Assembly (NCBI RefSeq): GCF_013391085.1
Contig: NZ_CP058334.1
Location: forward strand, 1,364,001 to 1,428,000
Origin: Natronomonas halophila
GTDB taxonomy: Archaea; Halobacteriota; Halobacteria; Halobacteriales; Haloarculaceae
Direction: 5' to 3'
Length of the DNA: 64,000 nucleotides
The notes beneath the pieces are model-generated. The model was not told the DNA's origin. It was given only the letters and a program-made list of their open reading frames with translations, and made no database searches. Shown in pieces: positions 24,430 through 51,077 of this stretch (the stretch's first letter is position 1; every line of letters starts with the position of its first letter). A program made the position numbers and the translations under genes.

Positions 24430-24641
24430 GACCACCCTGGTGGACGAAGGGCGAGGGCTTCGGGAGCCGTTTTGTGGATACCGAATACGGAACCGCGAGC
24501 AACATCTCTGAAGCCCTCGCACGCTACGGGAGTCCGAACCCGCAAGCACCGCAACGAGCGAAGCGAGTGAGGAGCGCAGCGCGGTTCAGACGACCGTAGC
24601 GCGCTCGCCCTTCATCCGCCAGGAGCCCGGTTTATAAATGG
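24430..24641 (+). repeat. Family A intergenic element, short/divergent copy 3
   Basis: Non-coding stretch between two convergent genes. It shares several blocks with the longer elements at 40108-40600 and 49788-50468: AAGGGCGAGGGCTTCGGG, GAAGCCCTCGC (inverted partner), GCAAGCACCGCA followed by GAGC-rich sequence and GCGCAGCG, CTCGCCCTT then CCGCCAGGA, and a terminal TTTATAAATGG. The central hairpins of the long copies are missing. Blocks were matched by eye. Confidence 0.55.
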
Positions 24642-39580: not shown

Positions 39581-39970
39581 TTACTCGTCGTCCTCGCCGC
39601 CGAGGAGGTCGTCGATGGACTCCTCGCCCTGCTCGACGATGCTGGCGTTGATCTGTCGCGTGTCGTCGGAGATTTCCGCGCCGCGAACGGTCACGCGCTT
39701 GCGCTCGCCGTCGACGCTCGGCTCGAAGCCGACGCCGCCCTCGAGGAGGATTTCGGCGGTGTCCGTGCCCGAGACGTCCTCGCGCATCGGTCGGCCCGAC
39801 GTGTCGGAGCCGCCCGTGATTTCGAGTTCGTAGCCCGAGAGGCCGAGGGCGTCACCGTCGACGGTTTCGCCGATAGAACGGCCGATGAATCGGTTCGCGT
39901 CCTGTCCGTCCACCTCGAAGGAGTACGTAGTGCCGTCCTCGTCCCCGACGACGACCTGAAAGTCTGCCAT
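39581..39970 (-). CDS. rps6e: Ribosomal protein S6e
   Basis: 129-residue small-subunit protein of the archaeal/eukaryotic S6e family. The start at 39970 yields MADFQVVVGDEDGTTYSFEV; the family core GRSIGETVDGDALGL, YELEITGGSDTSGRPMRED is intact, including the GGSD.xGxPM signature. The eukaryotic phosphorylated C-terminal extension is absent, as expected for archaea. Heads an operon with two conserved haloarchaeal proteins and diverges from engB across a 729-base gap holding a family A element. Confidence 0.93.
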   Translation of the reverse strand: MADFQVVVGDEDGTTYSFEVDGQDANRFIGRSIGETVDGDALGLSGYELEITGGSDTSGRPMREDVSGTDTAEILLEGGVGFEPSVDGERKRVTVRGAEISDDTRQINASIVEQGEESIDDLLGGEDDE

Positions 39971-40107
39971 ACGGGATGACACTCGGTGCGGCGGCAAAAG
40001 GGTATTGAAACAGATTGGTGGCTGGGCGTTTTTGGATTCGGTATCTATTCACCCGCTTCGGCGCGCTTTCGGGTGTTTTGCTCTACTGGGGTTGTGTTCT
40101 TTGGCGG

Positions 40108-40600
40108 TTTATAAATCGAGCTTGGCGACTCCTCGGCTGCAAACAGCCGGAAAGCCCTCGGCCGCTGGCGGTCGCTCAGCGACATATCCTCGCTTCGCTC
40201 GGATAGTGGTCGCTGAGGCGACTATATAAACGCCAGCGCACCTCGCCCTTTCTGTCCGCCAGGAACCGCGACCGCACCGCGCCTGCCCTTCCCCGGGTCG
40301 CGAGGGTCGCCGAGGGCGACCACTCGCTCCCGGCCAAGTGAGTCTTATAAATGGCGCGCGCTGGCCGACCGCCGCGAGCACACCGCGAGCGGCGGTCAGA
40401 CGGAGCCGTGCGAGGGACGACTGAACCCGAGCGAAAGCGAGGGTGAAGGAGTCGGTTGGGGAGGGTGTGGCTGCGGTCGCGGTACCTGGCGGAATCGAAG
40501 GGCGAGGCCGGATGGACGAAGCACGGCGACGCAAGCACCGCAGGGAGCAACGCGACCGAGGCGCGCAGCGAGCCGCGCGAGTCGAGCCGGCCGAGGGCTT
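40108..40600 (+). repeat. Family A intergenic element, copy 1
   Basis: Non-coding element in the gap between divergent rps6e and engB. It opens with TTTATAAAT. Its terminal inverted repeat AAGCCCTCGGCCG at 40152-40164 pairs exactly with 40588-40600. Inside are CGCTGGCG/CGCCAGCG (40163-40170, 40231-40238), GTCGCTCAGCGAC/GTCGCTGAGGCGAC (40171-40183, 40209-40222), GGTCGCC/GGCGACC (40305-40311, 40315-40321) and GACCGCCGC/GCGGCGGTC (40367-40375, 40389-40397). TATA-like CTATATAAAC and CTTATAAATGG lie between the stems. The element at 49788-50468 has the same order with different but still pairing stems. Short overlapping reading frames exist, but none looks like a gene. The rest of 39971-40699 holds the rps6e and engB promoter sequences. 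Confidence 0.8.
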
Positions 40601-40699
40601 CGGAGGCGGCAGTCCCTCTTGAGTAGCAGTCGGCAACATCAAACCCCTCAATTCCAGCAGAACCGGTCGGCTTATCCGAGCCAGCAGTCAAACATACAT

Positions 40700-41320
40700 A
40701 TGTTCGATTCACGCCCGAACCGCGATGCGGAGGTCGTCCTTCTCGGGCGGTCCAACGTCGGGAAATCGACGTTGATGCGGGAGATTACGGGCCACAGCAA
40801 GTTCGCCACCGGTGGCAGCCCCGGGGTCACGAAGAAGCCGAACCACTACGACTGGACTTCGGAGGACTTCGTCATCACCGACCTGCCGGGATTCGGCTTC
40901 ATGTCCGGCGTCCCCGAGGACGTCCGCGAGGACATCAAACGCCGCGTCGTCCAGTACCTCGAAGAGTACGCCGACAACATCCTCGTCGGCGTCCTCGTCG
41001 TCGACGGCAAGGCCGCCGTCGATATCATCGACCGCCACTCCGGCCCCGACGAGATTCCCCACGACGTCGAGATGTTCGGCTTCCTCCAGGAACTCGACAT
41101 CCCCACCGTCGTCGCCGTCAACAAGATGGACAAGGTCGACGAGCAGGACGACCGCCTCGACGAACTCGCCGAACGCCTCGGCTTCTATCCCCCGTGGCAG
41201 CAGTTCGACCACATCTTCGCGCCAATCTCCGCCAAGCGGGGCAATATCCAGCCGCTCAACGATGCGGTTCGGCACCATCTGCACGAACAGCAGCGGGACG
41301 ACCTTTTCAAGTTCTTTTAA
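40700..41320 (+). CDS. engB: EngB/YihA-type GTPase
   Basis: 206-residue GTPase that in bacteria assists 50S subunit assembly. G1 GRSNVGKST at 16-24, the switch segment [16 protein letters not shown]3 [11 protein letters not shown]4 NKMDKVD and G5-like PISAKRGN. The start at 40700 ([21 protein letters not shown]) is the family start; an upstream in-frame ATG would add 27 residues encoded by the flank of the repeat element. A family B element begins five bases after the stop codon. Confidence 0.9.
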
Positions 41321-49015: not shown

Positions 49016-49768
49016 ATGGAGGCCTTCGCCGTCGAGGGACTGCCGGAAATCCGTGCGGGCGACGACCTCGCCGCGCTCGTCGCCGACGCCGTCGAGTTCG
49101 AGGAGGGCGACGTACTCTGCATCGCCAGCACCGTCGTCTCGAAAGCCGAAGGGCGGAAGGCCGACCTCGCGGATTTCGAAGCCAGCGACCGTGCCCAGGC
49201 CATCGCCGAACGTATCGAGGCGATTACCGGCGACGAGAAGGACCCCCGGTTCGCACAGGCCGTCCTCGACGAAAGCGAGGAGTTGCTGACCGAAGCACCA
49301 TTCCTGCTCACAGTCACGCACTTCGGCCACATCACCGTCAACGCCGGCATCGACCGCTCGAACGTCCCCGGCGCCGACCTGCTGTTGTTACCCGAGCATC
49401 CGAGCGAATCTGCGCGGCGACTTTCGGAGGCATTGGGTGTGCCCGTTGTCGTGACCGATACGTCCGGGCGGCCGTTCCGCTACGGCCAGCGCGGCGTCGC
49501 CGTGGGCTGGCACGGTATTCCCGCTTCCCGGGACTGGCGCGGCGAGACGGACCGGGATGGTCGGGAGCTCGGCGTGACCGTGCAGGCCGTCATCGACGAA
49601 CTGGCTGCGACCGCGAATCTGGTCGCTGGTGAGGGTGGTGGCGGGACGCCTGCTGTGGTTATTCGCGACTGGGAATTCGGCGACCACGACGGTAGCGAGA
49701 ACCTCTTTCGGACCGAAGAGGACGACATCGTTCGGGAGGCTCTTCGGGATTGGAACTTCGGGGAGTAG
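49016..49768 (+). CDS. cofE: Coenzyme F420-0:L-glutamate ligase
   Basis: 250-residue GTP-dependent enzyme adding glutamates to F420-0. Start at 49016 (MEAFAVEGLPEIRAGDDLAA) matches the family N-terminus (AVxGLPEIxxGDDL). Other family segments: VLCIASTVVSKAEGR, RSNVPGADLLLLPEHPSESA, VVVTDTSGRPFRYGQRGVAVGW. Complete length. Provides F420 used by enzymes such as the NADP reductase at 18687-19355. Probably cotranscribed with the phosphoesterase upstream. Confidence 0.92.
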   Translation: MEAFAVEGLPEIRAGDDLAALVADAVEFEEGDVLCIASTVVSKAEGRKADLADFEASDRAQAIAERIEAITGDEKDPRFAQAVLDESEELLTEAPFLLTVTHFGHITVNAGIDRSNVPGADLLLLPEHPSESARRLSEALGVPVVVTDTSGRPFRYGQRGVAVGWHGIPASRDWRGETDRDGRELGVTVQAVIDELAATANLVAGEGGGGTPAVVIRDWEFGDHDGSENLFRTEEDDIVREALRDWNFGE

Positions 49769-49787
49769 TTTCGTCTGTGTTTCTTCT

Positions 49788-50468
49788 TTTATAAATAGAG
49801 CTTGACGACAGCGGGACCGCAAACAGCCGGAAAGCCCTCGGCCCGCTAGCTTGAGTCGTTTCTTTAAAAATCGAGTTTGGGAACGAGCAGACCGCAACGA
49901 CATAGAAAGCCCTCGGCCCGCTGGCGGTCGCTAATCAGGATATCCTCGCTCGCTCCGCTCGCTCGGATAGGGCCTGATTAGCGACTATATAAACGCCAGC
50001 GTGCCTCGCCCTTTCATTCCACCAGGACAGCACCTGCCCTTCCCCGGGTCGCGCGGCGGCCCTGACGGGCCGCACGCGCTCCCGGCCATCTGGATTTATA
50101 GATGGCGCGCGCTGGCCGACCACCGTGAGACTCGCCCGAGCGGTGGTCCGGCCAGCCAGCGCGCGAGGGACGACCGACTGAGCGCAAGCGAAGGAGGGAG
50201 TCGGCTGGGGAGGTTCGTGGTGCGGTTGCGGTGCTGTGCGGTCCTTGGAGGACTCGAAGGGCGAAGTGGTTCGAGAGAGCGAAGCTCTCTCGTCATCACG
50301 AAAGGCGCGAAGCGCCTTTCGGACGACCGGCTGGCGCTTGCATGGTCGTCTGAGCGGCCACTATCCGAGCGACCGAAGGGAGCGAGGATATGCCGCTCAG
50401 CGACCGCCAGCCGGCTGAGGGCTTCGTATGCGCTGTGGTCGAGACCGTTCGCAGGTTTGTTTATAAAT
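49788..50468 (+). repeat. Family A intergenic element, copy 2
   Basis: Occupies most of the 775-base gap between cofE and msrA, with TTTATAAAT at both ends. A 26-base terminal inverted repeat (49907-49932 with 50399-50424) matches at 24 positions and starts AAGCCCTCGG. Inside are GTCGCTAATCAGG/CCTGATTAGCGAC (49927-49939, 49973-49985), CGCTGGCG/CGCCAGCG (49919-49926, 49994-50001), GCGGCCC/GGGCCGC (50056-50062, 50067-50073) and GACCACCG/CGGTGGTC (50118-50125, 50141-50148). The first ~60 bases are partly duplicated in tandem (49788-49850 and 49862-49920). The right end repeats the left-end hairpin module in inverse orientation. The remaining bases of the gap hold nothing recognisable beyond the msrA promoter region. 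Confidence 0.8.
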
Positions 50469-50543
50469 CCCCCAACTCAAAGTGGTCCTCATCCCCTTTC
50501 CGACACGGAGAGGTTCAAGCGTCTGGAGGCCCAACAACACGCC

Positions 50544-51077
50544 ATGAGCGAGAACGAAACCGCGACGCTCGCGGGGGGCTGTTTCTGGTGTATCGAGGCG
50601 GCGCTGAAGGAGTTACGCGGCGTCGAATCGGTCGTCTCGGGCTACGCCGGCGGCCACGTCGAGGACCCGAGTTACGAAGCCGTCTGTCGGGGCGAGACCG
50701 GCCACGCCGAGGTCGTCCAGGTGGAGTTCGACCCGAACGTCGTCTCCTATCGCGATTTGCTGGAGGTCTTTTTCACCATCCACAACCCGACGACGCTGAA
50801 CCGGCAGGGCCCGGACATCGGCGAGCAGTACCGCTCGGCGGTCTTCTACCACGACGACGAACAGAAGGTGACCGTCGAGGACGTCATCGAGGACCTCCAG
50901 CCGCTGTACGACGACGATATCGTCACGGAGGTCGAACCGCTGGCGGAGTTCTACCGCGCCGACGACCACCATCAGGACTACTTCGAGAAGAACCCCGAGG
51001 ACACCTACTGCGTGGTCAACATCAACCCGAAACTGAAGAAGATTCGCGAGAAGCACGCCGAACTGATGGAGAGTTAA
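50544..51077 (+). CDS. msrA: Peptide methionine sulfoxide reductase A
   Basis: 177-residue enzyme reducing methionine-S-sulfoxide in proteins. Active-site GGCFWCIEAAL with Cys13 (and Cys16), GYAGGHVEDPSYEAVCRGETGHAEVVQV, FFTIHNPTTLNRQGPDIGEQYRSAVFYH in consecutive segments are diagnostic. Start at 50544 (MSENETATLAGGCFW); longer in-frame starts come from within the repeat element and are rejected. Monocistronic; 76 bases before a Usp gene. Confidence 0.94.
   Translation: MSENETATLAGGCFWCIEAALKELRGVESVVSGYAGGHVEDPSYEAVCRGETGHAEVVQVEFDPNVVSYRDLLEVFFTIHNPTTLNRQGPDIGEQYRSAVFYHDDEQKVTVEDVIEDLQPLYDDDIVTEVEPLAEFYRADDHHQDYFEKNPEDTYCVVNINPKLKKIREKHAELMES

What the first reader, a model, noticed from the sequence alone, without database searches (positions are those of the whole stretch)
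40108..40600. Family A intergenic element with covariation-like stems between copies
Comparing this element with 49788-50468 by eye, linkers are similar (AAAGCCCTCGG, CTATATAAACGCCAGCG, CCTCGCCCTTTC, CCCTTCCCCGGGTCGCG, CGCTCCCGGCCA, ATGGCGCGCGCTGGCCGACC, GCGAGGGACGA) while the stems differ in sequence yet still pair. Stem 1 is GTCGCTCAGCGAC/GTCGCTGAGGCGAC here and GTCGCTAATCAGG/CCTGATTAGCGAC there. Stem 2 is GGTCGCC/GGCGACC here and GCGGCCC/GGGCCGC there. Stem 3 is GACCGCCG/CGGCGGTC here and GACCACCG/CGGTGGTC there. Compensatory change in three independent stems suggests selection on structure (RNA or extruded DNA), not protein. TATA-like motifs sit between the stems. Inference: a structured non-coding RNA or a non-autonomous palindromic mobile element of haloarchaea.
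Basis: partly seen in the sequence, partly recalled or inferred. Interest (0 to 1): 0.85.

Follow-up and report, generated by a model that had tools for sequence, protein, structure and literature searches.

The report
Haloarchaeal modular structured intergenic repeat
The two matching stretches belong to a large, apparently undescribed family of folded DNA/RNA elements scattered between genes across salt-loving archaea, whose stems keep changing sequence yet stay paired, which points to selection on the folded shape, most likely of an RNA.

Summary
The two copies belong to a family of about 25 intergenic elements in this 3.2-Mb genome. They are built from repeated modules: a core hairpin (GGCCGGGA-[stem]-YGACCCGGGGAAGGGCAGG) and an M hairpin (GAAAGGGCGA-[stem]-GAGGGCTTTC).

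The core occurs in 154 of 394 genomes sampled from the class (44 of 85 genera). It is absent from 2.9 million viral contigs and has no Rfam match.

Covariation is far above controls. Core score is 0.362 against 0.131 ± 0.011 in shuffles. M pairs exceed every shuffle at nine positions. At syntenic loci in different species, stems differ but still pair. In the core, wobble pairs fall on one strand (29 GU against 4 AC).

The inner "TATA" is a variable bulge. Mobility is only indirectly indicated: copies in this genus are lineage-specific, while in other families they sit at conserved loci beside gene 3' ends. No transposase link was found.

Best reading: a BIME-like mosaic repeat whose units are selected as folded RNA. 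Expression is untested and the molecular function is inferred. I found no earlier description in the literature I could search.

The parts
40109..40150 (-). Element 1, left terminal segment (E1 type; outer TTTATAA, then GAGCTTGGCGAC...CAAACAGCCGG)
   Evidence: conserved end in most own-genome copies
40151..40252 (-).
   Evidence: fold and family
40171..40222 (-). Stem 1 of the finding, an inner helix of module M
   Evidence: family covariation of module M
40282..40335 (-).
   Evidence: covariance model R1 hit, E=2.4e-15; covariation
40345..40354 (.). Centre AT-rich box TTATAAATGG
   Evidence: kept in most own-genome copies
40353..40420 (+).
40497..40601 (+). Element 1, second module M, inverted relative to the first, with a different inner domain (CGACGCAAGCACCGCAG / GAGGCGCGCAGCGAG)
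40602..40626 (+). Element 1, right terminal segment (E2 type, ends CCCTCTTGAGTAG)
49788..49850 (-). Element 2, extra partial copy of the left terminal segment
   Evidence: self-similarity
49906..50015 (-). Element 2, module M hairpin, minus strand (stem 1 of copy 2)
50033..50087 (-). Element 2, core hairpin (stem 2 of copy 2)
   Evidence: R1 hit, E=1.7e-14
50095..50105 (.). Element 2, centre box TTTATAGATGG
50104..50173 (+). Element 2, third hairpin (stem 3 of copy 2)
50256..50425 (+). Element 2, second module M with two extra inserted hairpins
24510..24613 (-). Solitary module M elsewhere in the window, without a core

Best explanation
A haloarchaea-specific family of modular intergenic elements. 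Each unit has a core hairpin with invariant flanking motifs, and in many genomes an M hairpin with a fixed internal loop (GGCGA / GAGGG). SHOWN: the stems are kept paired by compensatory change, including at the same locus in different species; wobble pairs in the core lie on one strand; the window's elements combine a minus-strand unit and a plus-strand M module back to back. INFERRED: the selected molecule is RNA transcribed from that strand. Its invariant motifs (GGGGAAGGGCAGG, GGCGA/GAGGG, tandem CGAG/CGAG) would be sites for a shared protein or RNA partner, and the unit would work as a structured 3'-end or terminator-adjacent RNA. The family spreads and reshuffles in some genomes like bacterial interspersed mosaic elements.
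For: Covariation above shuffles and slides. 15 syntenic clusters with both flanks related, several with stems changed but paired, e.g. the rnp3 locus in five species and the thermosome-Lrp locus in four. GU 29 against AC 4 on one strand of the core stem, p about 1e-5, in the same direction in all lineage types. In the two short, gene-end types, T-runs on that strand are 80 against 40 on the other. In those types the convergent downstream gene end is constant (39 of 41). Internal loops and bulges are invariant while stems vary. Core hits are widespread in four families of the order. Absent from viral contigs and phages, one weak plasmid match.
Against: No expression data. No TATA box upstream of the core where the upstream gene points away. 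In the window's genome, copies lie between genes in all orientations, including 7 of 21 between divergent genes, so a 3'-UTR role cannot be general. In module M the GU/AC bias is weak (24 against 15). A C-to-T strand bias in mutation could mimic wobble asymmetry.
Confidence: 0.5

Rival explanations
1. A DNA-level REP/BIME-like element: the hairpins act as single-stranded DNA or cruciforms, recognised by a nucleoid, topology or recombination protein or by an unidentified single-strand transposase. Copies are moved and mosaicised as DNA.
For: Inverted pairs of modules in one element. Mosaic combinations of modules and inserted hairpins. High copy number, intergenic only, any orientation. Lineage-specific sites in the genus beside changed gene order. 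Tandem G-A motifs and short GC-closed loops also suit DNA hairpins (own knowledge). No promoter seen.
Against: No linked transposase: three TnpB loci and the single Y1 transposase locus do not carry the motifs. Stable inheritance at orthologous loci with compensatory change. Fixed orientation to the downstream gene end in two types.
Confidence: 0.33
2. No function: palindromes are kept paired mechanically by template switching between hairpin arms (quasipalindrome correction) and by gene conversion between copies.
For: The genome is rich in hairpin-forming GC repeats. Inner stem sequences are shared as cassettes between copies in this genome.
Against: Template switching would also remove the mismatched internal loops, yet these are the most conserved parts. 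Wobble intermediates favour one strand. Unpaired motifs are conserved across genera.
Confidence: 0.12
3. Derived from IS200/IS605 transposons, like the PATEs of Haloquadratum.
For: Haloarchaeal, non-coding, palindrome-bearing, a similar size (PMC3119063).
Against: No similarity beyond short chance-level matches to TnpB or Y1 loci of the same genome. Ends here are inverted repeats, whereas PATEs are defined as lacking them.
Confidence: 0.04

Closest known systems
Bacterial REP sequences and BIMEs (bacterial interspersed mosaic elements)
   Same: Many intergenic palindromic units per genome, paired in inverted orientation, mosaic with other short motifs, stems with alternative complementary residues; G-T pairing has been read as a sign of transcription (PMC3733652, PMC2817692).
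   Different: Units here are 55-170 nt with multi-helix structure and fixed internal loops, not 20-40 bp; no GTAG or CGTC tag seen; no RAYT link found; restricted to Halobacteria; inherited at orthologous loci.
PATEs, MITEs and SMRs of Haloquadratum walsbyi
   Same: Non-coding repeats of haloarchaea with palindromes, no transposase (PMC3119063).
   Different: PATEs lack inverted terminal repeats and match IS605 ends; no such match here; site conservation across genera.
Candidate structured RNA motifs found by comparative genomics (Rfam-type families)
   Same: Covarying stems, conserved loops, lineage-restricted distribution.
   Different: No Rfam match at E up to 10 for element 1, nor for the element in eight relatives' loci at E up to 1; copy number and mosaic architecture are unusual.

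Membership tests
REP/BIME | High-copy intergenic palindromic units | tested here: met
   about 25 copies in the own genome, all intergenic where the context was called
REP/BIME | Units of 20-40 bp with an unpaired GTAG or CGTC tag | tested here: not met
   units 55-170 nt; conserved flanks are GGCC/GGGGAAGGGCAGG and GAAAGGGCGA/GAGGGCTTTC
REP/BIME | Units in alternating (inverted) orientation within mosaics | tested here: met
   M minus - core - hairpin 3 - M plus in 16 own-genome copies
REP/BIME | Associated RAYT (Y1) transposase | tested here: not met
   the only Y1 locus found in the own genome carries no module motif
PATE / IS605-derived | Near-terminal palindromes matching IS605-type transposon ends | tested here: not met
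   the ISfinder collection itself was not available
PATE / IS605-derived | No terminal inverted repeats | tested here: not met
   arms of up to about 190 nt are inverted repeats
MITE | Target-site duplication and TIRs matching a transposon | not tested
   ends were listed but no duplication search was made; no clean empty site found
Known Rfam RNA family | Covariance-model match | tested here: not met
Structured non-coding RNA (as a kind) | Compensatory covariation above controls | tested here: met
   (no R-scape)
Structured non-coding RNA (as a kind) | Strand-specific wobble tolerance | tested here: met
   core 29:4; weaker in module M, 24:15
Structured non-coding RNA (as a kind) | Transcription | not testable with these tools
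   no RNA-seq data available; promoters not evident

The most novel reading that the evidence does not exclude
A Halobacteria-wide class of modular, multi-copy structured RNAs (core hairpin plus recurring internal-loop modules), present in dozens of genera, that binds a dedicated protein or RNA partner and acts at gene ends, spreading in some lineages as a mosaic repeat: an RNA family of a size and modularity not described in Archaea as far as I could search.
Probability: 0.4. Interest if true: 0.87.

Novelty: new variant of a known kind. Interest (0 to 1): 0.72.

Why it matters
A covarying, sequence-tagged structure repeated in dozens of haloarchaeal genera, with no Rfam family and no description I could find, implies an unknown cellular partner common to these organisms. 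Haloarcula and Natrinema, which carry it, include culturable strains, so transcription, binding partner and deletion effects can be tested. It would also bear on whether REP-like mosaic repeats work as RNA or as DNA, since here the strand and the loops are marked by selection.

Tried and rejected

Rfam at gathering threshold and at permissive E-values: nothing over the element; in relatives' loci only RNase P, tRNA and weak sub-threshold matches.

IS605/TnpB and Y1 origin: no shared ends.

Virus, phage or plasmid origin: no viral or phage match, one weak plasmid match in Halorussus.

Promoter idea (TATA between stems): the inner box is a variable bulge. From the listed sequence, the centre box would place a start inside the core stem (own reckoning from the usual archaeal TATA-to-start distance). 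No TATA upstream of the core in other lineages.

3'-UTR of the convergent neighbour: wrong strand for the wobble pairs. 3'-UTR of the upstream gene: that gene points away in about half of the cases.

Empty-site search in the genus: engB upstream in 18 relatives and the left gene of element 2 in 17 relatives had no element, but neighbours had changed too, so no clean empty site.

Literature: papers on Haloquadratum repeats, REP surveys including RepRanger, the Natrinema J7-2 genome and halite sRNAs were searched by term; none describes these motifs. Supplementary files could not be read, so one of the unnamed conserved Halobacteria sRNAs of PMC7002113 could be this element.

Full report
The observation. 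Minor corrections: stem 1 of copy 1 has one bulged base; stem 3 differs between the two copies by one compensatory pair only; the elements extend a little further than stated (40108 to about 40626, 49788 to about 50470); and copy 2 carries a second, partial left end.

A family, not a pair. A search of the window's own genome (3.2 Mb, one contig) with element 1 gives 58 matching pieces that assemble into about 25 elements or fragments. Aligned, they share linkers and swap stems. In the core stem, a few different stem cassettes recur between the same linkers. RNAalifold on 16 near-complete copies gives a left hairpin, a branched middle and a right hairpin.

Modules. Comparison with other haloarchaea resolves the element into recurring units. 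The core hairpin, read on the minus strand of the window, is GGCCGGGA-[stem]-YGACCCGGGGAAGGGCAGG. Module M is GAAAGGGCGA-[stem and loop]-GAGGGCTTTC, with a fixed internal loop GGCGA/GAGGG. Element 1 is M (minus), core (minus), a third hairpin (plus), M (plus): two units back to back. M-core-M in this arrangement is found in 16 own-genome copies. A solitary M lies at 24510-24613.

Covariation. For the core, 55 sequences give 90.9% paired cells, nine of fourteen pairs with changes on both sides, and a covariation score of 0.362 against 0.131 +/- 0.011 in shuffles, none of 500 reaching it; sliding partners by 1-3 columns drops pairing to 25-58%. A wider set of 105 distinct stems agrees. For M, 91 distinct modules are paired at about 75-98% in their first nine positions and exceed all shuffles at each. 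These controls do not model the phylogeny; R-scape was not available. Two facts reduce that worry. First, of 107 haloarchaeal matches to the 5' motif 97 have the 3' partner, against none of 14 chance matches in other organisms. Second, 15 syntenic clusters, in which both flanking regions are related, hold the element at the same place in different genomes, and in several the stem has changed while staying paired. Five distinct versions share the rnp3 locus, with stems such as GUGCGCCUC/GAGGCGCA and ACGCGUCUC/GAGACGCG.

Which strand, and RNA or DNA. In the core stem, transition-type departures from Watson-Crick pairing are mostly G-U on one strand (29) rather than A-C (4), in the same direction in every lineage type. 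That strand is the minus strand of the window. In the Natrialbaceae-like and Haloarcula types, T-runs of four or more after the core are 80 on that strand against 40 on the other. In these two types the element sits in a fixed direction beside the 3' end of the downstream, convergent gene in 39 of 41 cases, while the upstream gene points either way about equally. These points favour a transcribed RNA with a terminator at its 3' side, but do not prove it. No TATA box was seen upstream of the core where the upstream gene points away. In module M the wobble bias is weak (24:15). Single-stranded DNA hairpins would show a similar bias, and so could a strand-biased C-to-T mutation process.

Distribution and mobility. 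The core model finds 154 of 394 genomes drawn from the class, 44 of 85 genera, mainly in four families of the order. In a sample of the phylum the only matches outside the order are five single hits near the threshold. No match in 2.9 million viral contigs or in phages, one weak plasmid match. In the window's genus, orthologues of the flanking genes in up to 18 relatives carry no element and have other neighbours, so these copies are lineage-specific and lie at changed gene order. In the own genome the elements sit between genes of every orientation. No link to TnpB or Y1 transposases was found.

Interpretation. The family works like a BIME (mosaic, inverted, dispersed, palindromic) but fails the defining tags, unit size and transposase link of REPs, so I do not file it as one. 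It behaves like a structured RNA by covariation and strand bias, but expression is unknown. A mechanical origin of paired arms by template switching is unlikely because the mismatched internal loops are the most conserved parts. I put RNA-level selection at about one half, DNA-level selection at about one third.

Limits. Gene contexts rest on a home-made codon score, not a curated annotation. The collection pattern fixed the 19-base 5' motif, so conservation of that motif is partly by selection of hits; the stem was not so fixed. E-values of the covariance model are rough. Gene names such as rnp3, thermosome and Lrp were read from translated sequence from my own knowledge, not from a family search. 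Whether the element is already noted in supplementary tables of haloarchaeal sRNA studies could not be checked.

Noticed in passing
window 24510-24613 (minus): A solitary M hairpin without core; further solitary modules probably exist in the genome.
   Followed up: partly
L197 5239-5980; L096 near 7278: In two Haloarcula species the core lies just upstream of the RNase P RNA gene (Rfam match on L197; RNase P-like sequence read by eye in L096).
   Followed up: no
Natrialbaceae-type loci, e.g. L087, L098, L181: A further conserved hairpin follows the core: CGAAATTTTACCGAGGGAC-[stem]-GACCGCAGCGTAAAATTTCG, ending within a few bases of the neighbouring stop codon, with T-runs on both strands; in Haloarcula the same internal-loop strands appear in swapped order.
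   Followed up: partly
window 39970-40700 and 49768-50544: Gene neighbours on both sides of both elements differ from those in relatives of the genus; the elements may mark rearrangement breakpoints.
   Followed up: partly
L034, L038, L045, L048 and window 50256-50425: Extra hairpins are inserted whole at the same joints in several copies, as if hairpins were exchangeable cassettes.
   Followed up: no
own-genome copies, outer ends: Two kinds of element end occur: TTTATAA...GCTTGGCGAC and CTACTCAAAAGGGACCGC (outward CCCTTTTGAGTAG).
   Followed up: partly
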